Below are positions 17,751-35,914 of a DNA stretch of 64,000 bases, in pieces. Numbering within the stretch: position 1 is the first letter of the stretch; every line of letters begins with the position of its first letter. The stretch comes from Bacilli bacterium. GTDB taxonomy: Bacteria; Bacillota_I; Bacilli_A; RFN20; CAG-826. Location: the NCBI GenBank assembly GCA_017940265.1, contig JAGAYY010000020.1:1-64000 (forward strand). Direction: 5' to 3'. Below the pieces are notes generated by a model. It worked only from the letters and a program-made list of their open reading frames with translations, was not told the origin of the DNA and did no database searches. A program made the position numbers and the translations under genes.

Positions 17751-17779
17751 TTTACATATGAAATTTATAAATGTAAAAT
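17751..17779 (+). promoter_or_regulatory. Promoter of the Ser-rich/Ig-like lipoprotein gene
   Basis: TTTACA (17751-17756), 17-base spacer, TAAAAT (17774-17779). Predicted start near 17786; GGAGG follows before the ATG at 17809. A 10-bp palindrome GCATATATGC lies just upstream (17732-17741). Confidence 0.55.
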
Positions 17780-17808
17780 ATTACCAATTTTTTAATGGAG
17801 GCATTTTT

Positions 17809-20376
17809 ATGAAAGTTAAGAAATTACTTACATTGTTACTTGCCACCTCTATGTTAGTTGCTTGCGGTACTCAAACCAATAGCAGCAGTGATAAGGGCAG
17901 TTCCGAATCTGCTCCAAGCACAACAAGTAGCGATGTTCCTAGCACATCTAGTAGTAGTCCAGACACTAGTAGTTCAAGTACTTCTTCCAGCGCTCCAGCG
18001 CCAAGTTCTTCCAGCGCAGATCCAAGTACTTCTTCCAGCGCTCCAGTCGTGGTTACATTAGTTTCCATCTCTGTTACCGCTCCTACTAAGTTAGCCTACA
18101 CAACCGCTGACACCGCCTTAGATTTAACAGGCATGGTCGTCACAGCAAACTATAGTGATGCAACACAAAAGGTCATCACTGAAGGTTACACAGTCAGCAC
18201 AGTTGACTTCTCAACTGCTGGTGACAAAACAGTTACTGTTACATTTGAAGGTAAAAAAGACTCCTTCACAATTACAGTTGCTCAAGCAAAACCAACCGCT
18301 TGGGATGCTGATTTAACAGCTAAGTTCCAAGCTAATCTCTATGGTTACGTTCCACCTTTCTTCTATTCCCCAGACTTTGGCCTCGGCACATTAGAATGGC
18401 ATGAAGATACCGAAGATAAAGCTCTCTGGGCATTAGGTGGTACTCTCGCCGCTCAAAAAGAAGGTGAAGACAGCCCATTAAAACCAATTGGTGATTTATT
18501 CATCGCTGATGGCTTCGTTGCTTCTACAGTTCCAAATTTGGAAGAAGAAGAATATTACTACATCATGGAAAAGGCTGTTACATCCGAAGGCAAACAACGC
18601 TATATCGAAGCTAGAGTTGCAACAATTAATACCCAAGGTCAATTCTCCAACGGTGGTCAATTCTACATCGAAATCGGTGATTCCTACTTCTATGATTGGG
18701 CAGCATCTGGATTTGAAGCCGCTATTAAAGGCGCAATGAACTTCTCTGAAGATATTCCAGATTTACCAGAAGGTTTAAGATATCTTAAACGTTATCTCAC
18801 AATCTTTGAACAACAAGCACAAAACGGCTATGTTGGATTCGAAGTTGCAGGCGCTACTGTCGCTCTCGTTAATGAATACTTAGACGCTTTAGAAAATGCT
18901 GGTTGGACATTCAAGAGATCTACAAGAGAAGACATTATGTATGACGTCTTCTCACCAGAATGTGGCATTAGACTCGGTTTAGGTTATGATCAAACAAATC
19001 AAATCATGACACTCCGTTTCGATGTTCCACCAACAGTCCCAGAATATGTCAACTATGTTGCTAACTTATACAATATCCCAGGTAAAGGTTATGTCTTCAA
19101 TTACAGTTCCGATAGCGATAGCTATTTCTACACATTCAATGAAACATTAGCCGATGGCCAAACTTTAGGCGATTTACTCGATAAGTATAGTCCAGCATTA
19201 TTAAACGACACAGAAGGTGCCTTTGCTTTAAAGGGTACAAGACAAGAACGTGAAGGTCTCGCATATGAAACATATGTCAGCACAGCCAAGAACATTTCTG
19301 TTACTATCTTTGCTTTCTCTGATGAAGATGGTACAGGTGTCCAAATCTCTGTTGAAAAATACAATGCAGTTCCAGAACAATTCATTCCTGCTATTAACTT
19401 ATTAGGTATTAACGTTGACAATGTTAACGTCACAGCTGCTACACCAACAGCCAGTGCTTATGCTTATACACAAGTTAGAAGTGCTGCCAGTGTTGCTTAT
19501 GCTGACGCTCTCAAAGTCTTCACTGATATCTTAGATGCCGATACAACATTAGGCTTCAAAGTTATTGTTCCATTAAACGATACAACAATGAGTAGTGGTG
19601 AAGCTGCCAAACACATTGAATACGCTAACGACAACGTTAGAATTCAATTCCTTGCTTGGACAACAACATCTGCCACAATCGTTCAAATTGTCTTCTATGA
19701 TTACGAAGCTGCTCCAGAATCTGATTTAATTGAAAAGATTAATGCTGCTCTTCCATCAGAATATCAACTCACATGGGATGATGAAGATAAGACATTCTCT
19801 TACGCTAACTACCGTACTTTAGGTAAAGGCGAAACAGTTAAGAGTGTTGCTAGTGAAATCGCTGACGGATTATTAAATGCTGAATCTCTTGATTTAGAAT
19901 TATTAGTCTCCAACGTTTCCGATACTAAAGAAGCTAAGATCATCTTATATTGTGAAGAAGGCTCAGTTGAAATTCTTTACTCACAATACCATGGTAATAC
20001 CCCAGTCTTATTCATCACAGCTAGATTATTTGATACAACAGTCGATCCAGTTGTTAACGCTCTTGGTGCTGTCTTAGGTGTCAACTTACAATTAGTCCAA
20101 GAAGGCGTGTATGGTGCTTCTGGTAGATTTGGCTTCTCAAGCACATATTCATTACAACAATATGGTAGTGCGATCTTAAGAGGCTATATTGCTGCCGACT
20201 TACTCGCTTGTACAGCTTTAGGCTTCACATTAAAGAGCAGTGGTATGAATGGTAATGACTTTGTCGGTCAATTCAAAAACTCTGACGGTTATACCGTCCA
20301 AATCACATTATTAGGTGATGCTGATAAGAACTACAGTAACTACTATCAAGTTCTTGTTATTCTTCCACAAGCCTAA
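17809..20376 (+). CDS. Large lipoprotein with Ser-rich linker, Ig-like domain and 'AGW'-type modules
   Basis: An 855-residue lipoprotein: lipobox LVAC (Cys19), a Ser/Thr/Pro linker (about 22-79), one bacterial Ig-like domain of the Big_3 type (about 84-158, VSISVTAPTKLAY to DSFTITV), then about 690 residues related to the C-terminal part of lipoproteins A and B. Module copies include LENAGWTFKRST and IADGFVASTV, each followed by beta strands. The linker and Ig-like domain act as a stalk; the C-terminal region is probably ligand-binding. The start at 17809 has GGAGG eight bases upstream; an upstream in-frame ATG at 17758 would place 17 residues before the signal peptide. Function unknown. Confidence 0.85.
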   Translation: MKVKKLLTLLLATSMLVACGTQTNSSSDKGSSESAPSTTSSDVPSTSSSSPDTSSSSTSSSAPAPSSSSADPSTSSSAPVVVTLVSISVTAPTKLAYTTADTALDLTGMVVTANYSDATQKVITEGYTVSTVDFSTAGDKTVTVTFEGKKDSFTITVAQAKPTAWDADLTAKFQANLYGYVPPFFYSPDFGLGTLEWHEDTEDKALWALGGTLAAQKEGEDSPLKPIGDLFIADGFVASTVPNLEEEEYYYIMEKAVTSEGKQRYIEARVATINTQGQFSNGGQFYIEIGDSYFYDWAASGFEAAIKGAMNFSEDIPDLPEGLRYLKRYLTIFEQQAQNGYVGFEVAGATVALVNEYLDALENAGWTFKRSTREDIMYDVFSPECGIRLGLGYDQTNQIMTLRFDVPPTVPEYVNYVANLYNIPGKGYVFNYSSDSDSYFYTFNETLADGQTLGDLLDKYSPALLNDTEGAFALKGTRQEREGLAYETYVSTAKNISVTIFAFSDEDGTGVQISVEKYNAVPEQFIPAINLLGINVDNVNVTAATPTASAYAYTQVRSAASVAYADALKVFTDILDADTTLGFKVIVPLNDTTMSSGEAAKHIEYANDNVRIQFLAWTTTSATIVQIVFYDYEAAPESDLIEKINAALPSEYQLTWDDEDKTFSYANYRTLGKGETVKSVASEIADGLLNAESLDLELLVSNVSDTKEAKIILYCEEGSVEILYSQYHGNTPVLFITARLFDTTVDPVVNALGAVLGVNLQLVQEGVYGASGRFGFSSTYSLQQYGSAILRGYIAADLLACTALGFTLKSSGMNGNDFVGQFKNSDGYTVQITLLGDADKNYSNYYQVLVILPQA

Positions 20377-21070: not shown

Positions 21071-24000
21071 ATGAAAAAACTTGGATTCATTCTAGGCGCC
21101 ACATGTGCAGCAGTCATTGCTGTCGGTGGTTTAACAGCGTCTCGTCTTGCTAAACAGCCAGAAAGAGATGCGAGAATTATTGTTGAAGTGAATCGCAATG
21201 TGAAGTCTCTCAGTAAGCAAGGCATTAGAAATTCCCAAGATGCTGTCCTTGACAACATCATGGAATATGCCACAACAAACGTTAGACGCACAAAATGCTA
21301 CAACGAGTTGAATAACGCCTTTGTTCTTGAAGTGAATAGTAACGATATCGAACGTATTCGTGAAGTTCCAGGTGTTGCCAGCGTCACTCTTGATGAGATG
21401 CACTGGAAACGCACTTACAATAACGATGGCTTTATTGCTCTCGATGCAGAAGCTCAAGGAAGTGAAGGCTCTGTTGAAGAAAACATTTCCGCAGCCACAA
21501 TGCATAAACCAAATGATACCAATGATGGTGAAGGTACAATCGTTGCAATTCTTGATAACGAATTCCACCTCAGAGGTAAAACAAAGGACTCCGAAGAATG
21601 GCACCATGAAGTTTACGATGCCTTAGATAGTGATGTCGGTGTTAGATACACATTCAAATCTATCAAAAACATCGTTGGCTTAAATGCTAGCACCAGAAAA
21701 TTCGGTTCCAAAGAAGGTGAAGAAGGTTCTGAATACTTAAATAGTAAAGTTCCATTCTACTTCGACTACGGCGGTGAAAGCTTATCCTATGGTAAAGCTG
21801 GCGATCCAAAATACGATGTCCACAGCGACCTCTCATATCACGGTTCCCACGTTTCTTCCATTACCGCCGCTAATGCTCCAACTTACAAGGGCATTGCTCC
21901 AAAAGCTCAATTGGCATTAATGAAAGTCTTCACAGACTACAATGCTGATAAAGGTATTGGTAAAACAATCGGCTTAAGTAATTCTACTGGTGCATACGAT
22001 ACAGTTATCTTATCCGCACTTGAAGACTGCATTAAGTTAAAAGTTGATGGTATCAACATGTCATTAGGTAGTGACTTAGATGACTTCGATGGTGATTCCA
22101 TCACATTAAAAACATTAAAGAAACTTGCCGATGAAGGTATCTTATCCGCCATTTCCGCTGGTAATAGTGGTAAGTCCTCATTCAGTTCCACCGGTGCTTA
22201 TGCCAACTGGACAACAAGCATGGCGGAAACAGGCATTATGTCAAGCTATGCCAATAACGCTAACACAATGACCATTGCTTCTGGTCACCCAACCAGAATC
22301 TTCTATGAAAACGCTTTCACAGTTCCAGATGAAAAAGAAGGACAAAAGAATATCGCTTTCGAAGATCAAATCGTCAATAGACCTGGTATGGAAGATGACT
22401 ACAGAGACGAATTCCGTGTTAGTGACTTATTCACAAATGTTCAATCTTACGATTATCAATATGTTCCAGGTTTCGGTACGTTCGCCGATTATGGCACATT
22501 AGATTGCCAAGGCAAAATTGTCGTCGTCAATCGTGGTAGTACATCATTCGCTGATAAATACGCCACAGCCGTTGGTCAAGGCGCTAAAGCCTTAGTTATT
22601 ATCAATAACGACCCAACCGCTTCCGACTTCAACTTCCGTTGTAGTTTCGGTGATGGCTTCAATCCAACAATGCCATGCGCTCTTGTCTTATTCAAAGATA
22701 AAGAATACTTCGTCAATCACCCAAGTGGTCAATTCGGTATCATTCACAAACAAGTTAGTGATAACCCAAATGCTTATACAACAAGCTCATTCTCCACTGA
22801 TGGCGCAACATTCGACTTAGATCTCAAACCAGAAATCACTGCTCCTGGTGATAACATCAAAGGTGCTGTCCCAGAACACGCGATGACAAACTTAAAACAA
22901 GACGAAATTCACTCAGCTGAATACTGGCACAGATGTTACCAATATTTAAGTGGTACATCCATGTCCGCTCCTAACTATGCTGGTGCACAATCTGTCGTTC
23001 TTTCTAAAGTTGCTGGTCCTATCTACCACGATGCAAAAGCTGCTAGTAGATCAGTTACCGATGAAGAAGTAGAACAAATTGCTGCGTTCAGAAGAACAGT
23101 TGATATGAGATTAATGTCAACCGCTGATCCAATGACAGATGGTGAAGGTAATGAAAACCCAGAAACCAACGTCAGAAGCCTTATCTCACCAAGAATTCAA
23201 GGTGCTGGTATGGCCGACTTAGCGGGCGCATTAAGCACAGATGTCTATCTTGAAGGTTTAGATTTAAAGGGCAATAAGATTGGCAAAGCCAAAGTTGCTT
23301 TAAGAAATAATCCAGACATCGCTAAAGGTGATATCAAATTATCATTCTTAGCTCATAACGAAAGCACAGAAACTAGAAATTATGACGTCACATTAACCGT
23401 CATGAGACCAGCTCTTGCTCAACCAAATAACATCGTTACAAAAGACTACAACTTCAAAGGTGAAATTGATGACATCAAGAACCTTTCCGGTATGGCTTAC
23501 TTTGATACTGATGTTAGAAGAATGGAAATTGCTTCTGGTTCTATCGCTTATAAAGATGCCGTTAAGGCCTCTAAAGATATTGAATACTACGCTACAGAAG
23601 AAGCTTGGAAAGCTGACCAAGCCGATATCGAAGCTGGTAAACAACCAACTAGAAAAACAGTTATCAAACAAGGTTACTACTACAATGCCGCTAATGAAGG
23701 CGTTGATTGGCAACCTCTTCCAAGCTTCACAGCTCAATCCACTAAGGATGTTGTTATCGCCGAAGTTAAAGGTCAAACAGTGGCCGTTGCTCCAGGTGAA
23801 AGCACAATCACAATTAATCCTTATTCCTTAACTGCTGATGCTAAGAAGAAAATCTTAGATAATTATGAATATGGCTGTATGATTGAAGGTTTCGTTACTT
23901 TAAAGAGTAAAGATAACAAAGCCGATCTCTCCATCCCATATTTAGGCTTCTACTCAGGTGCTGATAAGAATGCTGATGCAACTTATGACAACGCTCCTGT

Positions 24001-25216
24001 TACTGAACCATTCAGTTTTGAAAAAGATATTACTAAAGTTTATCCATCAGACTTAGTTAATGACATTACTAAATCCTTAATTGGTAAAGATAACGTTAAC
24101 TTTGAATCTATGATCGTTGCTGGTTATGCTGAAAAGCCAGAAAAGATTAATACAGATTCCATTCTCACAAACGATCAATCATTCGACCGTTTAGCAGGCT
24201 TCTACAAAGTCGGTACAAGACCAAATGATGGTGAATATACCGCTACCCCAAGTAACGATATCTATCTTGGTAATGCTAAACAATCCAACACCATGATTAT
24301 TCAACAATTTATGTTGAGATCCGTGAAGGAAAACTACTTCACCATTACAAGAAAAGACAATAACCAACAAGTCTATGCTTCTGCCTTAGCAGATAGCTTA
24401 TTCGGTGATACCGCTGGCAAATGGGCCTTATATAAATCCCACGTTGATGCTGGTTACTTATCTGCCGGTTATGTCGCTCATAGAGCCTTTGCCGTTGTCC
24501 CATTATTTAATGAAGTTACAGGCGAAGCGTTCGCAAGTGGTGAATATGAACTTAAGTTCAATTACCAATTAGCCGGTACAGGCAATTGGGTCAGTAAATC
24601 TTACACCATCCACATTGATGGCGAGGCTCCAGTTGTTGAAACAATCACTGAATACAAAGATGCTAGTGGTGTCAATCAAGTGAGAGTTTACTTCAAAGAA
24701 GAAAAGATGTCCCACGCCTTCATCGGTAACTACATCGTCGATGTCAACTTCGATGCTGACAAGAACATGTATTACGCTGAAGCTACAAAAGAATTCGTTG
24801 ATAACGCTATCAATGAAATGAGTAGTGGTAGTGACAAACGTTTATTCATCGGTGGTGTTGACTACGCTAGAGGTACTTCTGGCTGTGTCGTCCACTTCAA
24901 CAACTACGATAACTTCTTATTAGGTTATCAAATGATTCAAGGTGCTGACTTAGATACATTCATTGACTTCACAGTCGGTGAAGATAACAAAGTTACATTT
25001 GTGAACGTTAACACAGGCGAAAACGTTCAAATCGATTCCAGATATGTGAAGGCTAACTTCAACGCTGTGATCGATTATGATCCAGATCAAAAGCCAGTTG
25101 AGCCAACAAAGAAAGGCTGTAACGGCGCAATCGCTTCATTATCACTCATTATTGGCGCTCCTGCCTTATTGGGTGCCTCATTACTATTCTTTAAAAAGAA
25201 AAAAGGAGGTAAATAG
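21071..25216 (+). CDS. Cell-surface subtilisin-like (S8) protease with PA domain and C-terminal membrane anchor
   Basis: A 1381-residue protease of the lactocepin/C5a-peptidase type. In order: signal segment (1-25), inhibitor I9-like propeptide (about 35-115), S8 domain with catalytic Asp162 (VAILDNEF), His257 (HGSHVSS) and Ser630 (GTSMSAP) and the oxyanion SAGNSG, a PA insert (about 440-560, GKIVVVNRGSTSFADK), then Fn3-like beta domains. The C-terminus has KKGCNGAIAS, a hydrophobic helix and a KKKK tail, like a sorting signal without LPXTG. All catalytic residues are present. It likely degrades proteins outside the cell. The next gene's ribosome-binding site lies within its last codons, so the protease and the peptide-binding protein are one unit. 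Confidence 0.93.
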   Translation: MKKLGFILGATCAAVIAVGGLTASRLAKQPERDARIIVEVNRNVKSLSKQGIRNSQDAVLDNIMEYATTNVRRTKCYNELNNAFVLEVNSNDIERIREVPGVASVTLDEMHWKRTYNNDGFIALDAEAQGSEGSVEENISAATMHKPNDTNDGEGTIVAILDNEFHLRGKTKDSEEWHHEVYDALDSDVGVRYTFKSIKNIVGLNASTRKFGSKEGEEGSEYLNSKVPFYFDYGGESLSYGKAGDPKYDVHSDLSYHGSHVSSITAANAPTYKGIAPKAQLALMKVFTDYNADKGIGKTIGLSNSTGAYDTVILSALEDCIKLKVDGINMSLGSDLDDFDGDSITLKTLKKLADEGILSAISAGNSGKSSFSSTGAYANWTTSMAETGIMSSYANNANTMTIASGHPTRIFYENAFTVPDEKEGQKNIAFEDQIVNRPGMEDDYRDEFRVSDLFTNVQSYDYQYVPGFGTFADYGTLDCQGKIVVVNRGSTSFADKYATAVGQGAKALVIINNDPTASDFNFRCSFGDGFNPTMPCALVLFKDKEYFVNHPSGQFGIIHKQVSDNPNAYTTSSFSTDGATFDLDLKPEITAPGDNIKGAVPEHAMTNLKQDEIHSAEYWHRCYQYLSGTSMSAPNYAGAQSVVLSKVAGPIYHDAKAASRSVTDEEVEQIAAFRRTVDMRLMSTADPMTDGEGNENPETNVRSLISPRIQGAGMADLAGALSTDVYLEGLDLKGNKIGKAKVALRNNPDIAKGDIKLSFLAHNESTETRNYDVTLTVMRPALAQPNNIVTKDYNFKGEIDDIKNLSGMAYFDTDVRRMEIASGSIAYKDAVKASKDIEYYATEEAWKADQADIEAGKQPTRKTVIKQGYYYNAANEGVDWQPLPSFTAQSTKDVVIAEVKGQTVAVAPGESTITINPYSLTADAKKKILDNYEYGCMIEGFVTLKSKDNKADLSIPYLGFYSGADKNADATYDNAPVTEPFSFEKDITKVYPSDLVNDITKSLIGKDNVNFESMIVAGYAEKPEKINTDSILTNDQSFDRLAGFYKVGTRPNDGEYTATPSNDIYLGNAKQSNTMIIQQFMLRSVKENYFTITRKDNNQQVYASALADSLFGDTAGKWALYKSHVDAGYLSAGYVAHRAFAVVPLFNEVTGEAFASGEYELKFNYQLAGTGNWVSKSYTIHIDGEAPVVETITEYKDASGVNQVRVYFKEEKMSHAFIGNYIVDVNFDADKNMYYAEATKEFVDNAINEMSSGSDKRLFIGGVDYARGTSGCVVHFNNYDNFLLGYQMIQGADLDTFIDFTVGEDNKVTFVNVNTGENVQIDSRYVKANFNAVIDYDPDQKPVEPTKKGCNGAIASLSLIIGAPALLGASLLFFKKKKGGK

Positions 25217-25220
25217 TAAG

Positions 25221-28208
25221 ATGAAAAAATTTACATTAGGACTTTTAGCAGTTAGCTTCCTTTCATTAGGTGCTGTCGTTGCTTGTGATGGTGGCCACGG
25301 CTCTAGTGTTGTTGCTTATGACTTCTCCGTCTCTTTAAGTAATGGCTCAACTGTCATGAACAAAGGTGAAGAAGCTCACGTTAACATCGATGAAATCGGT
25401 GGCAATCCAGAAGATGTTAGAGAATTCACATATACTTCTTTAACACCATCAGTTGCGGCTGTTAATGCAAACGGTACAGTTACCGCTTTGGCAAAAGGTG
25501 AAACAATTATCACCGTTAGTGAAAGTAAATCTGAAAAGACACACTCCTTAAAGGTAACGGTTATCGATGCTTCACCAGCAGATGGTGGCTTCAACTATGC
25601 TTCCGCTTCTGGTAAATCCGCTATCGAAAAGAGAACCGAAATCCTCGGTGCTCTTGAAAAGAATGCGATGGATAATCACTTAACAGGTATCACCTTATTC
25701 TAAAATGGTGGCTATGTTAAATACAAATCACGTGTCAATTTACCAACAACCACATACATCACTGGTTATGGTTTCGGCTTATTAAGTGAAGGTTCTTTAA
25801 AAGAACCAATGGCCGCTGAAACAGAATCAGCTTATAAGAATTATTTACACACTGCCTCTTCCTCTGACCCACACATGGTCAACGCTAGAGACAATGATGG
25901 TAGCCAAGTCTCTGACTTAGAAGGCTATATTACCTCTTCATATTGGGGTACCAAGATGAACGATACCAAAGACGGCTATGTCTGGTATCCAGTTCTTGCT
26001 AAAGACACAGTTAAATTTAACGGTGTCGATCGTGCAAACGATAGACCAATCCCAGTTTATAATGGCACTGAAGTCAAACCAGACGAAGATCCAAACCCAT
26101 TAGGTCTCTATAGCACATGGAGAATCTATGTTAAAACTGGTGCGGATGGTCTCAAATACCGCTATAGCGGCACACCATGGGATGGTGTTGATTACGATCA
26201 TAGACCAGTTGCTATTGAAGACTACGAATTTGCATTCCGTAACCTTCTTACTGGTTCTCACGGTTTATCCCGTGGTTCCCAAATCGCTTCTGACCAAACA
26301 TATGGTATCGTCGGTGCACAAAGATACTATAACAACACAAATGTTAAAGATATGTCCGACGAAAAGGCCTTAAATGTTTGGAATAACATGAAGAGCAAAG
26401 GCGAATTAGGCCTTCAAACAGGTCATGATGATACAAATGGTGATTTCATTCAATTAACATTATTAAATCCTATTGATAGATTTACCGCGATGTACACATT
26501 ATCTTCTAGCTTATATTCTCCAATCCCAGAAGACTTCATCCGTGCTCTTGGCTATAAAGCTGGTGTATCTGAAGATCAAATCGGTTTCGTTAGAGATGGT
26601 TCCAAGAGATATGGTACATTCAACGATAACAGTAGTGTTCCTGCCGCCCATCAAAACAAGATTTGTGACTCAGTTCTCTCTGTTGGCCCATATATGCTTG
26701 AAAGATGGGACAAAGATATGAGCATCTTCTACAAGAAGAATACTGAATGGAATGAACCAGGTAGATACAACATCGAAGGTATCAAGATTCTCATCATCAG
26801 AGCCGCTCAACAATCCCCAACAGCCATCTATGACCGCTTCAAACAAGTTGGTGACTTAGATAGCTGCGGTATTCCATCTCAATATATTGATGTTGAAGTC
26901 GGTCAACCAGACGTTTTCCAAACAAAAGGTAACTCTACCTTCAAACTCAACGTTAACTCTTGTACACAAGAAATGTGGGATACATTAAATAAAAAATTAT
27001 GGAAGCACACAGATTCTGATAGATACATCTGCAAACCATGGATGAGTAACGATAACTTCTTAAATGGCTTATTCTACTCCATTGATAGAAAGACTTTTGC
27101 TACAAAACAAGGTTCGCAACCATCTATCAACTACTTCTCTGATTCTTACTTAAGTGACCCAGAAAATGGTGTTTCTTATAACGATACAGAAGCCCACAAG
27201 AACGCTGTTGCGGCATATCAAACATATGACGCCGATGGCAATCCAACTTATGGTTATTCCAAAGACAGAGCTGTTTCTTGCTTCAAAGCTGCGGTTAGAG
27301 AATTAGTCGCTCAAGGCAAGCTCAAATATGGCTCAGTCGATAAGCCAAACAAGATTAGCATCAACATTTGGTGGATGTATCAAAGCGATATCAAACAATA
27401 TGGCGAAGATATTGAAAAATACTTCACAGATGCCTTCAATGATCCAGACGTTTCTGGTGGTACAATCAAACTTGAACTCGATCAACAAGCCGTTACAGTT
27501 TGGGATAAAGTCTATACTGACCACTTACAAGTTGGTAAATTCGACTTAGGCTTCGGTGCTATTTCCGGCAACACTTATAACCCACTTAACTTCTTAGAAG
27601 TTTTAAAGAGTGATAACTCTTCATCATTTACACTTAACTGGGGCACAGATACATCTGTCATTTCCAAGACAAAGCCATTAATCTATGATGACAAGATGTG
27701 GTCATTCGATGCTTTATGGTCAGTCGCTGACCACGGCGGCATCGTCAAGAATGGTTCTGTTGCTAAGACAGTTGAAATCAGCTACGTCGATTCCTTAAGA
27801 AATGACTTCTATAACGGTTTAGACTTCTCCGTCTGCACTAAGTTCATTGAAGCTGAAGCGGCGGCAATTGACCTCACACGTGTCCAAATCTATGTTGTTG
27901 GCTACGGTGGTGTCGATGTTGAATTCACAAAGAGCGTTAACGAAAAAGGCGAATTGGTTGCAAATGTTCACTTATCTCCAGAATTGGCGGCTCAAATCAA
28001 TGCTGATATGAGACATGCTAACCACATGGACGACATGGATAAATATCCAAAATTATGGAACGAAACACCATTCACCTATGCTAACTACAATAAGTATTGG
28101 AACATTGACGTGTTCTATAGTTTAGCCATCACTTCCGAAGGCAAACAAGGCACACCAACCGAAGCTTATGTTACTGCTGCAAAGAACGCTGACGACTGGA
28201 AAGATTAA
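25221..28208 (+). pseudogene. oppA: Oligopeptide-binding lipoprotein OppA interrupted by an in-frame TAA
   Basis: Start at 25221 (GGAGG upstream); lipobox VVAC (Cys22); Ig-like Big_2 domain (about 32-115); then an SBP_bac_5 peptide-binding domain. Codon 161 (25701-25703) is TAA. Reading continues in the same frame from 25704 to the proper stop at 28208, with good family sequence on both sides (ITLF before, NGGYVKYKSRVNLP after). A single base change from GAA or CAA would explain it. The first ATG after the stop (25809) has no clear ribosome-binding site and would make a protein without signal peptide. Upstream protease and downstream opp genes are intact. It may be a recent nonsense mutation, a sequencing or assembly error, or a read-through site. 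Confidence 0.85.
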
Positions 28209-28224
28209 TAAGGAGGATTAAACC

Positions 28225-29505
28225 ATGAAAAACAAAAAAGTTTTATTCCTCACTTCATTATTAGCCGTTGCTACATTGGCTGGATGTGGTACAAAAACCT
28301 CATCCAAAGCCGATGACGGCGTTCCAACATCAATGATTCTTCCAGAAGCTTCTGAAGTCCAAGGCTACGATAACGATAATGTCAAGTTCCCAGAAGAACT
28401 CCTCGTTAATCATAGAGTGGCCGCATTGATGGTTAATGAAACACTTCAATTAGAAGCCACAGAGCAATTCGGATATGCCGCGAACAACGTCAAATACGAA
28501 GTTAAAGATGCAACTGTTGCTACTGTTAGTGAAAACGGTCTCATTACTGGCTTAAAAGCTGGCGAAACAGAAATCGTCGTTACTGACAAGAACAATCCAG
28601 AGTTCAAAAGAACAGTCCCAGTGGCTGTTTATGGTCAAGTTGCTTCCGCCGATGTTCTCGGCATCACAAGTGCTCTAAAGGCTTATGAAAATGAACATCC
28701 AGTAAATGAAGTAGTTCAACGCAAGAGAATTACTAGAACATTCGCTAAACGTCCATATGTTGAACCTGTTGAAGGTGAACCAGAAAACGATACACCATAT
28801 ACCGTCTTTTCCGCAGATTATTCTGATGAAATGATGGTCTTCAGTGTTGAAGATGCCTACCTCAGAATGTTAGAAACAGACTCTGAAGTCAGAGTTACTG
28901 ATGGCGCTGTTGACTTCACAACATATGACTGGATTTTCCACACAAATAGATATTACGATACACTCGTTTATCACCAACAAGGTGACGCTAAGACCTTCTA
29001 TGCAGCAGCTACCCAAGACTATATGGATGCTGGTGTAAGAAGTGCGCCATTATATGACGTCTTAGATAACTTATTCACTGTTGGCCACACATTCTTTGAA
29101 AATCAATTAGAAAATGCCAGTTTCGCAGATATCGCTGATATCGCTGAAAATGACTACAACAACGTTGAAGATAAGAAAGTTGGCTCAATGGGTGATGGTT
29201 CGTTGTTTGTCCATGGTATTCTCACATTCAAAGACAGCACCGCTGACAATGATGATGAAAGAAACTATGGTATCCCAGTTGGTACACCAACTCCAACAAC
29301 CCAAGATTCAACTTGGATTGTTAAGGATAACAAAGTGGAAGCTATCTACTTCTACCTTGTCCAAGATTACATTATTGATGATTACGAATATCAAATGATC
29401 ATGGATATTGATATCAAAATTGATGAACTCAGTGCGGACAGAAGCGAAATCTATGTCCCTGCTAGAGATGGATATCAAACTGTTGATTACTTATTCGCTA
29501 TCTAA
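28225..29505 (+). CDS. Ig-like lipoprotein of the opp locus, function unknown
   Basis: A 426-residue lipoprotein: lipobox LAGC (Cys21), a Big_2-type Ig-like domain (about 60-135, VNETLQLEATEQF to FKRTVPVAVYG), then about 290 residues without a recognised family. It starts 16 bases after oppA with AAGGAGG upstream and ends at a terminator, so it is expressed with the protease and oppA. A role presenting or capturing peptides for Opp is an inference from position only. If oppA is truly broken, this is the only intact exported lipoprotein in the locus. Confidence 0.85.
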   Translation: MKNKKVLFLTSLLAVATLAGCGTKTSSKADDGVPTSMILPEASEVQGYDNDNVKFPEELLVNHRVAALMVNETLQLEATEQFGYAANNVKYEVKDATVATVSENGLITGLKAGETEIVVTDKNNPEFKRTVPVAVYGQVASADVLGITSALKAYENEHPVNEVVQRKRITRTFAKRPYVEPVEGEPENDTPYTVFSADYSDEMMVFSVEDAYLRMLETDSEVRVTDGAVDFTTYDWIFHTNRYYDTLVYHQQGDAKTFYAAATQDYMDAGVRSAPLYDVLDNLFTVGHTFFENQLENASFADIADIAENDYNNVEDKKVGSMGDGSLFVHGILTFKDSTADNDDERNYGIPVGTPTPTTQDSTWIVKDNKVEAIYFYLVQDYIIDDYEYQMIMDIDIKIDELSADRSEIYVPARDGYQTVDYLFAI

Positions 29506-29523
29506 TCGTAATAGCAAAACACA

Positions 29524-29552
29524 AAAGGACTGCTTAAAGCGGTCCTTTTATT
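29524..29552 (+). terminator. Internal terminator between lipoprotein and oppB
   Basis: A 10-bp stem AAAGGACTGC/GCGGTCCTTT (29524-29533 with 29539-29548), loop TTAAA, then a T-rich tract. It separates the highly translated protease/binding-protein unit from the permease and ATPase genes. Confidence 0.9.
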
Positions 29553-29684: not shown

Positions 29685-30740
29685 ATGTTAAGGTATTCAT
29701 TAAAAAGACTCTTACTTGCATTTGTAACCGCCTTTATTATTCTTACACTTACTTTTATCTTGGTTAAGGCTCTTCCTGTAACACTCAAGATTTCAACCAG
29801 TGCTGGCGAAAGAATGGGTTTCTATGACAAACAAGTTGCTCTTGGCTATTTTAGTGTCATTATTAAACCTGAAACTGAACATTACAAACCAACATTTAAA
29901 ATCATAGAAAGCTTTGTGGTTGATAAAAAAGAGTATTTCTATTATCCTAGACCAATTCTCGAACAATATTTTTCATGGCTTGGTAACATTTTCACTAAAT
30001 GGGATTGGGGCACATCCACATCCTTAGAATTAAATGCTTCTGCGATTAGACTTATTGGTAGACGTTTGCCAGTGTCAATGTCCATCAATATTATCGTTGT
30101 TTTAGTCTCTGTTCCATTAGGTATCCTTCTTGGTATCTATGCTGGTTTAAAGAAAAACACATGGATTGACCATACTATCTCCACATTAATCATGATCTTC
30201 GTTTCCATTCCTGGATTCGTCGTCATCACCTTCTTAATTTTCTTCTTCTCTTATCAAACAGGTTGGCTCCCACCTTCATGGCCGAGCTCTACCGCTCCTT
30301 TAGGCACAAGAATCTTAGGCTATATCATTCCTGTCTTATCTCTATCTTTCGGTTCTATCTGTGGCTATGGTAGAGGTGTTAGAGCGGAACTTTGTGAAGT
30401 TATGTCTAGTGAATACTTATTACTTGCTAGAACAAAAGGCTTAACAAAGAACCAAGCAATCATTCGTCATGCTTTAAGAAATGCCTTCGTGCCAATTCTT
30501 CCAAGTATTCTTGCTGAATTTATTGGTATTTTAGGTGGTTCCATCGTTTTGGAAAGATTATATGGTATTCCAGGCGTTGGTAACATTTACTTTGAAGCCT
30601 TAAACAATACACCAAGAGACTATAACGTCTTAATGGTTGACATGGCTGTTTTTACCATCATTGGTTTATTAGCCGGCATCCTTTTTGACTTATCATATGG
30701 ATTCATTGATCCAAGAATTAGAATGGGGGCGAAGAAATAG
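29685..30740 (+). CDS. oppB: Oligopeptide ABC transporter permease OppB
   Basis: A 351-residue inner-membrane permease of the OppB/DppB family. The N-terminal segment MLRYSLKRLLLAFVTAFIIL is the family signature helix. Residues about 35-100 form an external loop before the BPD_transp_1 core, and the EAA-type coupling loop (LLLARTKGLTKNQAIIRHALRN) and C-terminal GLLFDLSYGFIDPRIR-like ending are present (here GILFDLSYGFIDPRI). It has AAAGGAG seven to nine bases before the start and is followed two bases later by oppC. It forms half of the channel for peptides. Confidence 0.93.
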   Translation: MLRYSLKRLLLAFVTAFIILTLTFILVKALPVTLKISTSAGERMGFYDKQVALGYFSVIIKPETEHYKPTFKIIESFVVDKKEYFYYPRPILEQYFSWLGNIFTKWDWGTSTSLELNASAIRLIGRRLPVSMSINIIVVLVSVPLGILLGIYAGLKKNTWIDHTISTLIMIFVSIPGFVVITFLIFFFSYQTGWLPPSWPSSTAPLGTRILGYIIPVLSLSFGSICGYGRGVRAELCEVMSSEYLLLARTKGLTKNQAIIRHALRNAFVPILPSILAEFIGILGGSIVLERLYGIPGVGNIYFEALNNTPRDYNVLMVDMAVFTIIGLLAGILFDLSYGFIDPRIRMGAKK

Positions 30741-30742
30741 TT

Positions 30743-32887
30743 ATGTTAGAAGATAAAGATTTCGAATTCGTAGAAGAAACCCCTGTTACTAATGAAGAAG
30801 TTCCAGCCGAAGATGAGATTACCGCTGATGATTTCACTTTAACGGAAGTTGATTCTTCAATTCACGAACAAAAGTTCCAAACAAAACCAACAACATTTAC
30901 TAAAGACGCTTTCAGAAGATTTAAAAAGAATAAATCGTCTGTGGCCGCGACTTACATTTTGGGCACTTTAGTGCTTTTATCAATTGTTATTCCACTTGTT
31001 GATAGAAGCGATATTCAAAATTCTCACCCAGAAGAAATTTTCCTTTCACCAAAATTATTTAATGCTGGTACAGGCTTTTGGGATGGCACAGAAAGATATT
31101 CAAACATCGCTGTTGATATTTCTGAAATGCCAAACGCTACCACCGAAGAAGAAAAACAAGAACACTGGTGGCCAAGTCCAGATGTTTATACTCAACGTTC
31201 TGCGATTTCCAAAAAGAAATTCACTGATTTGACATATGTTAACAGCCTTTCTAACTTAGGTACATTCGGTAAAGAAGGCTATGTGCAATTTGGCTTTGAT
31301 AGAAACGAACTCAAAGGCAATGACTTCGTTGAATTCTCTTCTCAAGAGATTCCAGAATTAGAATTAGCTGCCAATAGCTTATATCTCAGTGCCTTTGATA
31401 CATATGACGCTGAAAAAATCCAAGCAAAAGAAGGCAAGGAAGATTTTGGTCTTCCAACCAATTATGTCCTTGGTGATGTCGCTTTATTCTTCTCTTATTA
31501 TGAAGGGGAGACAAAACAAGAAGTTCAATTAGTGGACTACGCTAAAGTACACAATATCGGTAGTGCACTTGCCTCTTATAAAAAAGACAAAGTCGATATC
31601 GCTAATGTCATTACTACACAAACTGGTAAAACAACATTTGAAAAAGCACGTTTTGCCATCAAAATGGCGACAGCCGGTGAAGACCGTCTTGTTTGTAACT
31701 TAATCGGCGCTCTTGCTTTCGAAAGCAACTTTGCTGAAGAAGAAACAAACGCTATCTTTGCTGATATGTCTTTCACTGATGCCACTAAAGCATTAACTAA
31801 AACAGCAGATGATAGATTTGCCTATTGGAGTAGTACTGGTCTTAGAGCCATCTACCTCTCCAAAGCATATTTCTGTTCATTTGTTTATGATACATATGAA
31901 GCTAAATATGGCGTTGCCGTTGATCCAAACTTCTCCATCAAAGACCTTTTAAGATATCAAAAGAATGGTTGGATTTCTTTCAAAACTCCACTTGGTGATT
32001 CTACACTTCGTGACCTCGAAGACTTAGGATTCTATCTTAATGTTAATGAATTCACCTGCGAGATTTTAGATAAAGAAAAATGTCCTATCACCAAGCCATT
32101 AACCATTGATGATTTTGTTTATCCAACACCAAGCGATGGTATTGCGGTCGGTGAAATCGTTTGTAAGGCAGAGGTTTGCCGCTATAAAAAGTTTGGTTAT
32201 TCATCAATGCCAAGATTCCTCTTAGGCACAGATGAATCAGGTAGAGATATGCTTAAGTATGTTTTTGAAGGTTTAAGAACATCCTTAATCGTCGCCACCC
32301 TTACATTCCTCATCTGCTTCACATTTGGTGTTATTTGGGGTTCCATCTCTGGTTATTTCGGTGGTAACGTCGACTTAATCATGGAAAGAATTACCGATAT
32401 CTTAGGTCGTATCCCATTCATGGTTTTAATGACATTGCTCATCCTCCACTGGGGTTCATCATTACCAATGTTTGTTATGGCGTTATGTATGACCGGTTGG
32501 ATTGGCACTGCTTCCTTAACCAGAACGCAGTTCTATAGATTTAGAGGTCGAGAATATGTTCTTGCCTCACGTACATTAGGCGCAAGTGATGCTAGATTAA
32601 TTGCTAAGCACATCTTCCCTAATGGCTTAGGTACAATCATTACTGCTGAAGTTTTGTTAATCCCAAGCGTTATCTTTAGCGAAGCCAATATCGCCTACTT
32701 AGGCTTAGGCTTACAAAACGTTTCATCATTAGGTGTTATCTTATCCGATAACCAAAAGTGGTTGAGTGTTCACCCATACTTACTATTATTCCCATCCATT
32801 ATCATCGCCTTATTAATGATTTCATTTAACTTGTTCGGTAATGGCTTGAGAGACGCTGTTAACCCAAGCTTGAAAGGAGAAGACTAA
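30743..32887 (+). CDS. oppC: Oligopeptide ABC transporter permease OppC with large external insertion
   Basis: OppC permease of 714 residues, more than twice the usual 290-340. An acidic cytosolic N-terminus (about 1-50) is followed by helix 1 (about 68-88), then about 390 residues before the conserved FLLGTDESGRDML, where most OppC proteins have about 40. The core is otherwise normal, with the EAA loop EYVLASRTLGASDARLI. The added sequence faces outward and reads as a folded, soluble domain (few long hydrophobic runs). It may help receive peptide from OppA. Similar enlargements occur in mycoplasma Opp permeases. One base separates it from oppD. Confidence 0.92.
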   Translation: MLEDKDFEFVEETPVTNEEVPAEDEITADDFTLTEVDSSIHEQKFQTKPTTFTKDAFRRFKKNKSSVAATYILGTLVLLSIVIPLVDRSDIQNSHPEEIFLSPKLFNAGTGFWDGTERYSNIAVDISEMPNATTEEEKQEHWWPSPDVYTQRSAISKKKFTDLTYVNSLSNLGTFGKEGYVQFGFDRNELKGNDFVEFSSQEIPELELAANSLYLSAFDTYDAEKIQAKEGKEDFGLPTNYVLGDVALFFSYYEGETKQEVQLVDYAKVHNIGSALASYKKDKVDIANVITTQTGKTTFEKARFAIKMATAGEDRLVCNLIGALAFESNFAEEETNAIFADMSFTDATKALTKTADDRFAYWSSTGLRAIYLSKAYFCSFVYDTYEAKYGVAVDPNFSIKDLLRYQKNGWISFKTPLGDSTLRDLEDLGFYLNVNEFTCEILDKEKCPITKPLTIDDFVYPTPSDGIAVGEIVCKAEVCRYKKFGYSSMPRFLLGTDESGRDMLKYVFEGLRTSLIVATLTFLICFTFGVIWGSISGYFGGNVDLIMERITDILGRIPFMVLMTLLILHWGSSLPMFVMALCMTGWIGTASLTRTQFYRFRGREYVLASRTLGASDARLIAKHIFPNGLGTIITAEVLLIPSVIFSEANIAYLGLGLQNVSSLGVILSDNQKWLSVHPYLLLFPSIIIALLMISFNLFGNGLRDAVNPSLKGED

Positions 32888-32888
32888 T

Positions 32889-34682
32889 ATGGAAAATAAA
32901 CAAATTGTATTATCCGTTAAAGACTTACGTGTCAACTTCTCCACAGACCATGGTTATGTCCAAGCGGTTAGAGGCGTTTCGTTCGATTTATATAAAGGTG
33001 AAACATTATGTATCGTTGGTGAATCTGGTTCAGGCAAATCTGTTACCAGTAAAACCATCATGGGTATTTTAGCCGCAAACGGTCGTATCGTTGATGGTTC
33101 CATCATGTATGAAGGTGAAGATTTAACCAAGGTTTCTGAAGATGAGTTCCATCGTATCAGAGGCCGTAAGATTGGTATGATCTTCCAAGACCCATTATCA
33201 TCTTTAAACCCAATCATGCGTATCGGTAAACAAATTACCGAAGCCATGTTATTAAATGGTAATCACTTAAAGAAGATGAAAGAAGAACTCGTTGCCGAGG
33301 AATTCGTTGCTTATAAGAACGCTATTACTGCTTATCAAAGCGAACTCAACAAAGGCAAAGAAACTGTCAAATTCTTAAAGAGTGAAAAGAAAAAAGAAAT
33401 TGAAAGAATCAAAGCCATTGTTAAAAACGAAACCGATGGTGCAGTTTATGCTTTGAAATTAGACTATGGTCTAGAAAAAGTTCACATTAAGCATAACTAT
33501 GATGAATTACTCGCTAAAGAAAACGAAAAACTTGCCGCTTTCAAAAACGGTCAACAAATCGAAAATAGCGAAGAAACTATCGAAGATGTTAACAATAAGA
33601 TTGCTTCCTTAAAAGAACAAAAAATAGCTGAATTAAAAGCCGCTGATGAAAAGTATGCCGCTAAGAAAGCAGAAATTCTTAAAGAAGCAGAAGAAAAGAA
33701 AGCTGTTAATAAAGAAGAATTAGCGAAAGTTAAAGCGGACTTCGATAAGAAGATTGCCGAAGCTCAAGCTCACAAGAACGCTAATAGTAAAGAATTAACA
33801 GCGAAATATAAACCAATCATCGCGGAAGCTAAAGCTAAATATTTAGCGAAGAATAAAGAAGCTAACGTTAAAGTCGCGGAAGTTAAAAAACAATACCGCG
33901 CTGAATACGAACAAGACCTTAGAAATGGCGTTGATAAAAAGGCCGCTAAGGATAAGTACATCGCCAAGATTAAAATTACCAAAGCCGAAGCTAAACGCAG
34001 AGCGCTTAAGGTTATGGAAGAAGTCGGTATCCCATTCCCAGAAAGAAGATTCAGACAATATCCATTTGAATTCTCTGGTGGTATGAGACAACGTATCGTT
34101 ATCGCGATTGCGTTAACCGCTAACCCAGATATCTTAATCTGTGACGAACCAACTACAGCCTTAGACGTGACCATTCAAGCTCAAATCCTTGAATTAATTA
34201 ACCGTTTAAAAGCGGAAAGAAACATCTCTGTTATCTTTATTACTCACGACTTAGGTGTTGTCGCCAATATGGCGGACCGTGTCGCAGTTATGTATGCTGG
34301 TAAAATCGTTGAATATGGTAAAGAAGAAGAGATCTTCTATGATCCAAAGCATCCATATACATGGGCGCTATTAGCCTCTATCCCTGACGTTGATAGTAAG
34401 GAAAGATTGGAAGCCATCCCTGGCACTCCACCAAACCTTGTCTTCCCACCTAAGGGTGATGCCTTCGCCTTACGTAGTAAATATGCGATGAAGATTGATT
34501 TCAAGAAAGAACCTCCATATTTCAAGGTTAGTGATACTCACTATGCCGCTACTTGGTTATTAGACCCAAGAGCGCCAAAAGTGGAAATGCCTGCTATTGT
34601 TAAGACTCGTATTGAGGCCTCATTAGCAGCACATAAAGCTAGAGAAGCTAAAAAAACAAAAGCTAAGAAGGAGGACAAATAA
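32889..34682 (+). CDS. oppD: Oligopeptide ABC transporter ATPase OppD with coiled-coil insertion
   Basis: An ATPase of 597 residues (usual about 330). Walker A GESGSGKS (44-51), Q-loop Gln100, signature FSGGMRQR (395-402) and Walker B ILICDEP (Asp419, Glu420) are intact. Between Q-loop and signature, about 235 extra residues (about 128-365) rich in Lys, Glu and Ala are predicted as a long coiled coil. The C-terminal oligo_HPY region (AFALRSKYAM...HYAATWLLD) lacks the Cys residues that bind an iron-sulfur cluster in many OppD/DppD proteins. It should still hydrolyse ATP to drive import. Tightly packed with oppC and oppF. Confidence 0.93.
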   Translation: MENKQIVLSVKDLRVNFSTDHGYVQAVRGVSFDLYKGETLCIVGESGSGKSVTSKTIMGILAANGRIVDGSIMYEGEDLTKVSEDEFHRIRGRKIGMIFQDPLSSLNPIMRIGKQITEAMLLNGNHLKKMKEELVAEEFVAYKNAITAYQSELNKGKETVKFLKSEKKKEIERIKAIVKNETDGAVYALKLDYGLEKVHIKHNYDELLAKENEKLAAFKNGQQIENSEETIEDVNNKIASLKEQKIAELKAADEKYAAKKAEILKEAEEKKAVNKEELAKVKADFDKKIAEAQAHKNANSKELTAKYKPIIAEAKAKYLAKNKEANVKVAEVKKQYRAEYEQDLRNGVDKKAAKDKYIAKIKITKAEAKRRALKVMEEVGIPFPERRFRQYPFEFSGGMRQRIVIAIALTANPDILICDEPTTALDVTIQAQILELINRLKAERNISVIFITHDLGVVANMADRVAVMYAGKIVEYGKEEEIFYDPKHPYTWALLASIPDVDSKERLEAIPGTPPNLVFPPKGDAFALRSKYAMKIDFKKEPPYFKVSDTHYAATWLLDPRAPKVEMPAIVKTRIEASLAAHKAREAKKTKAKKEDK

Positions 34683-34684
34683 CT

Positions 34685-35914
34685 ATGGCAAATAGAAAAG
34701 TTACTTATCTTCCCGAATTAGTGGATAACAATATTGAATTATCAGTCAGACACTTAAAGCAATTCTTTAAGTTCGGACATGGTAAAAATGCTTTCGTTAC
34801 CAAAGCCGTTCACGATATCAGTTTTGATATCAAAAAAGGTGAATGCTTCGGTGTCGTTGGTGAATCTGGCTGTGGCAAAACCACAACTGGTAGAACTTTA
34901 ATCAGATTATATAAGGCTACTTCCGGTTCTGTTTATTTCAAAGGTTACCGTATTGTTGCGGGTAATAGATGGAATGAAAAAGAAATCAAATGGAAGAGAA
35001 TTAAAACAAATCGCAAGATCAGAGACTTAAAGAACGAAATGAATGAAAAGATTCGCGTTCTTTCTGACGAACAAGGTAACAAAGAATTTGTTGAAAGTGA
35101 AAGTGCTAAGATTAGAGATCAATATAACGCTCAAATCGAAAAATTAAAAACCGATTTAGCGGCTTTAATCAAGGAACAAAAAGAAAAGATTGCCCAACAT
35201 AACTACGACAACAAACATGTTGATAAGAAGTTAATGAGCAAGATGCAAATGATCTTCCAAGATCCAGTTGACTCTCTTGACCCACGTATGACCGTTGAAG
35301 ACATCATTCAAGAAGGTTTACACATCCAAGGTCAATATAATGCGTTTGAAAACTCACAAAAGGTGAGAGAAGCCTTAATCAAGGTTGGCTTATTACCAGA
35401 ATACGCTTCTCGTTACCCACACGAATTCTCTGGTGGTCAACGTCAACGTATTGGTATCGCAAGAGCGTTAATTATGAATCCAGACTTCTTAATCTGTGAT
35501 GAACCAATTTCCGCCCTTGACGTCTCTATTAGAGCCCAAATCATCAACTTATTAAATAACTTAAAAGATGAAATGGGTTTAACCATTATGTTCATTGCTC
35601 ACGACTTATCCGTTGTTAAATACTTCTGTGATAGAATTGCCGTTATGTACTTTGGCAATATCGTTGAGTTAGCAAGTAGTGATGAATTATTTGCTCACCC
35701 ATTACACCCATACACCAGAGCGTTACTCTCAGCAATTCCAAAGCCAGACCCATTAAGTGAAAAGGAAAGAAAGAGATACATCTATGTTCCTGCTAATGAG
35801 CATGATTATTCTAAAGAAGCTCCAAGCCTCGTAGAAATCACTCCTGGACACTTCGTTATGGCTAACAGCGAAGAACTTGAGAAATATCGTAAAGTTCTAA
35901 ACGAAACGAAATAA
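34685..35914 (+). CDS. oppF: Oligopeptide ABC transporter ATPase OppF with helical insertion
   Basis: An ATPase of 409 residues (usual about 310-330). Walker A GESGCGKT (59-66), Q-loop Gln192, signature FSGGQRQRIGIARAL and Walker B FLICDEP are intact. An insertion of about 85 charged residues (about 95-180, for example EMNEKIRVLSDEQ) lies between Walker A and the Q-loop, and is probably coiled coil. It is two bases after oppD, whose ribosome-binding site AAGGAGG is in the 3' end of oppD. It pairs with OppD in the transporter; the two insertions may contact each other. Confidence 0.93.
   Translation: MANRKVTYLPELVDNNIELSVRHLKQFFKFGHGKNAFVTKAVHDISFDIKKGECFGVVGESGCGKTTTGRTLIRLYKATSGSVYFKGYRIVAGNRWNEKEIKWKRIKTNRKIRDLKNEMNEKIRVLSDEQGNKEFVESESAKIRDQYNAQIEKLKTDLAALIKEQKEKIAQHNYDNKHVDKKLMSKMQMIFQDPVDSLDPRMTVEDIIQEGLHIQGQYNAFENSQKVREALIKVGLLPEYASRYPHEFSGGQRQRIGIARALIMNPDFLICDEPISALDVSIRAQIINLLNNLKDEMGLTIMFIAHDLSVVKYFCDRIAVMYFGNIVELASSDELFAHPLHPYTRALLSAIPKPDPLSEKERKRYIYVPANEHDYSKEAPSLVEITPGHFVMANSEELEKYRKVLNETK

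What the first reader, a model, noticed from the sequence alone, without database searches (positions are those of the whole stretch)
25221..28208. Single in-frame TAA splits an otherwise perfect oppA in a highly expressed locus
Codon 161 (25701-25703) is TAA, but family sequence continues in the same frame on both sides with no other damage over about 835 codons. The neighbours (protease, lipoprotein, oppBCDF) are intact. A very recent GAA-to-TAA or CAA-to-TAA change, a sequencing or consensus error, a mixed population, or true read-through are all open. If real, it would disable peptide capture unless another binding protein substitutes.
Basis: partly seen in the sequence, partly recalled or inferred. 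Interest (0 to 1): 0.55.

Follow-up and report, generated by a model that had tools for sequence, protein, structure and literature searches.

The report
Lone stop codon interrupts peptide-binding gene
In one assembled genome of an uncultured gut-type bacterium, a gene for a peptide-capturing surface protein has a single premature stop that its close relatives lack; it is most likely a very recent, ordinary knock-out mutation (or an assembly error), with a second intact peptide-uptake system elsewhere in the same genome.

Summary
Codon 161 (25701-25703) of a 995-codon oppA-like lipoprotein gene is TAA. The frame is otherwise intact, with 160 codons before the stop and 834 after it.

None of 17 relatives aligned across the site has a stop there, and 15 of 17 encode Glu. 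In a family-wide search, 108 of 224 genomes match. Only one other genome has an in-frame stop; it is at another place, in a gene that is also truncated.

The post-stop part still looks fully constrained: dN/dS is 0.055 against the nearest relative, with 7 amino-acid-changing codon changes on each branch. The stop is therefore very young, or not real. It is the only genuine in-frame stop found in about 53 kb compared with relatives.

TAA ends 28 of 39 window ORFs, and no UAA-reading tRNA was found among 43 tRNA matches. This argues against suppression or recoding. A second opp operon with an intact OppA lies on another contig.

Verdict: an ordinary private nonsense mutation, or a consensus error in a metagenome assembly. 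Only reads or another genome of the species can separate the two. Interest is low.

The parts
25221..28208 (+). oppA-like lipoprotein gene (signal and lipobox, Big_2 Ig domain, SBP_bac_5 domain), 995 codons with one in-frame stop
25205..25209 (+). GGAGG ribosome-binding site of oppA
   Evidence: sequence shown; also
25701..25703 (+). premature in-frame TAA, codon 161; Glu in 15 of 17 aligned relatives
25221..25703 (+). predicted translated part: 160-residue stub (signal, Ig domain, first about 40 residues after it; no SBP core)
25809..28208 (+). first in-frame restart ORF (799 aa); no signal peptide and no GGAGG-type site well placed before the ATG
21071..25216 (+). subtilase (Peptidase_S8 with PA domain), intact, 4 bases before oppA
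28225..29505 (+). Ig-domain (Big_2) lipoprotein, intact
29523..29549 (+). terminator-like hairpin (12 pairs) that may separate protease-oppA-lipoprotein from oppBCDF
   Evidence: consensus match only
29685..30740 (+). oppB permease, intact
30743..32887 (+). oppC permease with a long insert, intact
32889..34682 (+). oppD ATPase, intact
34685..35914 (+). oppF ATPase, intact

Best explanation
A very recent nonsense mutation, private to the sampled strain, ends translation of oppA after 160 residues. The stub would be an exported lipoprotein carrying the Ig domain but almost none of the peptide-binding domain, so this opp locus would capture no peptide through its own OppA. The permease and ATPase genes stay intact, and the second opp operon, with an intact OppA, may cover part of the need. 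Shown: the stop, its absence in relatives, the intact and constrained remainder, and the second operon. Inferred: that the base is really in the cell's DNA, loss of function, and compensation.
For: The stop is single and clean. It is absent in 17 of 17 aligned relatives, three of them 88-95% identical. There are no frameshifts and no other genuine in-frame stop in about 53 kb compared with relatives, so the assembly is not generally poor here. On the own branch, post-stop changes are 7 amino-acid-changing and 52 silent codons, against 7 and 49 on the sister branch. If unconstrained for the whole branch about 214 amino-acid-changing changes would be expected, so at most about 6% of the branch can have been unconstrained. 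Codon bias is kept. A second opp operon with an intact OppA lies on C5. PMC5797395 (passages seen) reports a like situation in Mycoplasma synoviae: an oppA with a premature stop in one strain, beside an intact second opp operon.
Against: Lack of any decay fits a sequencing or consensus error equally well. The genome is a fragmented assembly (63 contigs, 88.2% complete), and no reads or second genome of the species were available. A gene with such strong codon bias and constraint is expected to be costly to lose.
Confidence: 0.6

Rival explanations
1. Consensus or sequencing error, or a minority variant written into the consensus of a mixed population; the real gene is intact in most or all cells.
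For: No sign of relaxed selection; private to one assembly of 63 contigs; a single substitution is enough.
Against: No other genuine in-frame stop and no frameshift in the compared part of the window; 43 ABC_tran matches in the same genome have no stop inside. So errors of this kind are not common here, though one cannot be excluded.
Confidence: 0.32
2. Translational read-through: the stop is decoded often enough, by a suppressor tRNA or by context, to make full-length OppA.
For: The post-stop part is constrained and keeps its codon bias. PMC7918605 (abstract and parts of Results and Discussion seen) argues that many in-frame bacterial stops keep dN/dS under 1.
Against: The stop is not shared by any aligned relative (0 of 17), whereas that paper's large-scale part restricts itself to stops shared by two or more species to reduce artefacts. 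TAA ends 28 of 39 window ORFs. No UAA-reading tRNA among 43 tRNA matches; in one degenerate match the anticodon could not be assigned. The tRNA set may be incomplete because the assembly is.
Confidence: 0.05
3. The gene has been split into two working products: an Ig-domain lipoprotein and a separately started 799-residue protein.
For: An in-frame ATG at 25809 opens a 799-aa ORF.
Against: No GGAGG-type site well placed before it; the nearest purine run, GAAGG, ends 16 bases before the ATG. No signal peptide, so it would stay in the cytoplasm. It lacks the conserved first stretch of the domain, around the stop, that relatives keep.
Confidence: 0.02

Closest known systems
Nonsense-disrupted oppA in Mycoplasma synoviae WVU-1853 opp-I (PMC5797395; passages seen)
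   Same: Premature stop in oppA of one of two opp systems; the other system is intact.
   Different: There the stop lies close to the 3' end; here it lies at codon 161 of 995 and removes nearly the whole binding domain.
In-frame stop codons in bacterial genes under purifying selection (Belinky et al. 2021, PMC7918605; abstract and parts of sections 4 and 7 seen)
   Same: A single in-frame stop in a gene that keeps dN/dS well under 1. The paper finds most such stops short-lived, on the scale of population polymorphism.
   Different: Its large-scale set is limited to stops shared by two or more species; this one is shared by none of the relatives tested.
SBP_bac_5 oligopeptide-binding lipoproteins (OppA) with an oppBCDF operon
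   Same: SBP_bac_5 and Big_2 domains score over Pfam's cut-off; oppB, C, D and F neighbours are present.
   Different: No NCBIfam match for this protein and no solved structure found by sequence, so its substrate is inferred from the neighbours.

Membership tests
OppA-type solute-binding lipoprotein (SBP_bac_5) | SBP_bac_5 domain over the curated cut-off | tested here: met
   46.6 bits against a cut-off of 32.4, on the read-through protein
OppA-type solute-binding lipoprotein (SBP_bac_5) | Signal peptide with lipobox cysteine | tested here: met
   N-terminus MKK...VVAC, Cys22, by eye; no signal-peptide program was available
OppA-type solute-binding lipoprotein (SBP_bac_5) | Encoded beside oppB, C, D and F | tested here: met
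OppA-type solute-binding lipoprotein (SBP_bac_5) | Binds oligopeptides | not testable with these tools
   no NCBIfam match; needs a binding assay
Recent pseudogene by nonsense mutation | Disabling stop absent from orthologues | tested here: met
   0 of 17 aligned relatives have it
Recent pseudogene by nonsense mutation | Little or no decay if very recent | tested here: met
Recent pseudogene by nonsense mutation | The stop is really in the DNA of the cells | not testable with these tools
   no reads and no second genome of the species
Conserved stop-codon read-through or recoding | Stop shared by orthologues | tested here: not met
Conserved stop-codon read-through or recoding | A tRNA that reads UAA, or TAA avoided as terminator | tested here: not met
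   limited by assembly completeness and one unreadable tRNA-like match

The most novel reading that the evidence does not exclude
A strain-level phase of peptide uptake: the stop is a real, segregating variant that lowers or switches off OppA (perhaps with slight leaky read-through), as short-lived adaptive loss of function, for instance to escape a toxic peptide or phage that uses this protein, while the second opp system carries growth.
Probability: 0.07. Interest if true: 0.35.

Novelty: already known. Interest (0 to 1): 0.1.

Why it matters
It matters little beyond annotation. A gene-calling pipeline would report a short lipoprotein and a 799-residue orphan ORF, and a metabolic reconstruction would score this peptide-uptake locus as lacking its binding protein, on the strength of one base that may be strain-specific or wrong. 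If real, it is a plain case of one of two opp systems losing its receptor very recently.

Tried and rejected
Recoding of TAA: rejected, since TAA ends 28 of 39 non-overlapping window ORFs of at least 150 codons, and 43 ABC_tran matches in the own genome show no stop inside.

Suppressor tRNA: none found. 43 Rfam tRNA matches in the own genome. ARAGORN named the anticodon for 40 of them (which was given 31 loci or stretches that together cover all 43). The other three were read by hand: C57:600 reads CAU, C18:97048 reads GUU, and C18:58938 is degenerate with a 4-base loop in the Rfam alignment, so its anticodon cannot be assigned.

Stop shared with another family member: G115:C162 also has one TAA, but it lies between the Ig and binding domains and the gene is broken off at query residue 436. 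It is an independent pseudogene.

Second copy of the same gene in the own genome: none. One search gives one full match and one weak Ig-domain match.

Two further stops flagged by the window scan (17873 and 58768) were dismissed: the first comes from a chance ORF on the strand opposite the gene at 17758-20376, the second lies before the start (58786) of its gene.

Structure model: the AlphaFold2 model from a 5-row alignment had mean pLDDT 33.3 and was not used.

Papers: a search for metagenome assembly, premature stop codons, consensus and strain heterogeneity gave nothing. The searches gave the two papers cited; one search was read as a listing only.

The first alignment attempt was wrong because minus-strand loci were not reversed; it was replaced. 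A frame-change check at the end was void (its query file had been overwritten) and was redone.

Full report
Observation. The window gene at 25221-28208 reads as one frame of 995 codons with a single TAA at codon 161, positions 25701-25703. Upstream are GGAGG and an ATG. The N-terminus looks like a lipoprotein signal with Cys22 (by eye). Pfam finds Big_2 at 37-107 and SBP_bac_5 at 437-800 in the read-through protein. The stub therefore holds the signal and the Ig domain but not the binding core.

Surroundings. A subtilase gene ends 4 bases before oppA. After oppA come an Ig-domain lipoprotein and oppB, oppC, oppD and oppF, all open. A 12-pair terminator-like hairpin at 29523-29549 may separate the first three genes from oppBCDF (consensus match only); if so, an effect of the stop on the downstream transport genes would be limited. 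This last point is inference.

Source. The window is contig C13 of an assembly of 1,734,249 bases in 63 contigs, 88.2% complete. That it is a metagenome assembly is inferred from this and from its relatives: the four nearest loci in genome contigs come from assembled genomes of uncultured bacteria, titled Erysipelotrichaceae or Bacillales.

Relatives. In a search of 59 related genomes 29 had some match. I aligned 17 relatives whose match was one stretch with E of 6e-97 or better. I left out G014, whose gene is split over two contigs with no stop in either piece, G034, and the weak or Ig-only matches. None of the 17 has a stop at the aligned position; 15 have Glu, one Ser and one Asp. A wider search of the family found matches at E 1e-60 or better in 108 of 224 genomes; stops inside were reported for this genome and for G115 only. 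Some of those matches do not reach codon 161, so they say nothing about it. G115's stop is elsewhere, and its gene is truncated as well.

Selection. Against G008, dN/dS is 0.299 before the stop and 0.055 after it; eight intact neighbours give 0.047-0.199, and the gene at 17758, the highest in the call, gives 0.343. Against G011 the two parts give 0.255 and 0.122. The higher value before the stop is seen against both relatives and fits the faster Ig and linker region. With G011 as outgroup, post-stop changed codons are 7 amino-acid-changing and 52 silent on the own branch, 7 and 49 on G008's; 18 were ambiguous. With G001 as outgroup they are 7 and 52 against 7 and 43, with 24 ambiguous. A neutral branch would give about 214 amino-acid-changing changes; the one-sided 95% bound from 7 observed allows at most 6.1% of the branch without constraint (a rough estimate). 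In the pre-stop part the own branch has 8 amino-acid-changing codons against 2 on G008's (G011 outgroup; 11 against 7 with G001), which is few and not explained.

Error background. Proteins of G008 and G011 laid on the window covered 52,926 bases at 70% identity or more. Four stop reports came back: two are this stop, and the other two are explained by an opposite-strand ORF and by a stop before a gene start. No frame change was found in the 64 of 99 relatives' ORFs that match at 60% or more. ABC_tran gives 43 matches in the genome, none with a stop inside.

Decoding. TAA ends 28 of 39 window ORFs. No tRNA reading UAA was found among 43 matches, with one degenerate match unassigned and an incomplete assembly.

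Expression hint. With codon weights from a ribosomal-protein region of the same contig (3,990 codons, including a few non-ribosomal genes such as secY-like and adenylate-kinase-like ones, named by eye), the 799-codon ORF has CAI 0.789, the highest of 39 window ORFs.

Redundancy. The genome holds two SBP_bac_5 proteins over the cut-off: this one and one on C5. The C5 gene follows two permease and two ATPase genes, is open (626 codons), and its best NCBIfam hit is an OppA model, below that model's cut-off. Among 16 relatives searched plus the own genome, 13 of 17 have at least one SBP_bac_5 match.

Conclusion. This is a private, very young or unreal nonsense change. Real mutation and consensus error cannot be told apart here; I lean to a real strain-level mutation because the rest of the compared sequence is clean. 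Published parallels exist (PMC5797395, passages; PMC7918605, abstract and parts of sections 4 and 7). I make no claim that anything here is absent from print.

Noticed in passing
window 30743-32887: OppC is 714 residues: about 400 residues are inserted between the OppC_N segment (51-91) and the permease domain (529-711). The function of the insert is unknown.
   Followed up: no
window 32889-34682 and 34685-35914; L084 3235-5001: OppD and OppF have long charged inserts inside the ATPase domain; OppD's best NCBIfam match is the MMSYN1_0167 OppD model (below its cut-off). The OppD-like ATPase of the second operon (588 residues) has a similar insert.
   Followed up: no
L078 1039-1108 (G000:C18:58938-59007): A tRNA-like match with a 4-base anticodon loop in the Rfam alignment; perhaps a degenerate tRNA.
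   Followed up: partly
L085 (G115:C162): An independent broken oppA relative: one TAA between Ig and binding domains, and the 3' half lost.
   Followed up: partly
window 21071-25216: A membrane-anchored-looking subtilase directly precedes oppA here and at the same place in G008 and G011, suggesting a joint protein-cutting and peptide-uptake locus.
   Followed up: no
same-genus genomes G003, G009, G010, G012: Four of 15 same-genus genomes show no match at all to this oppA; whether lost or unassembled was not tested.
   Followed up: no
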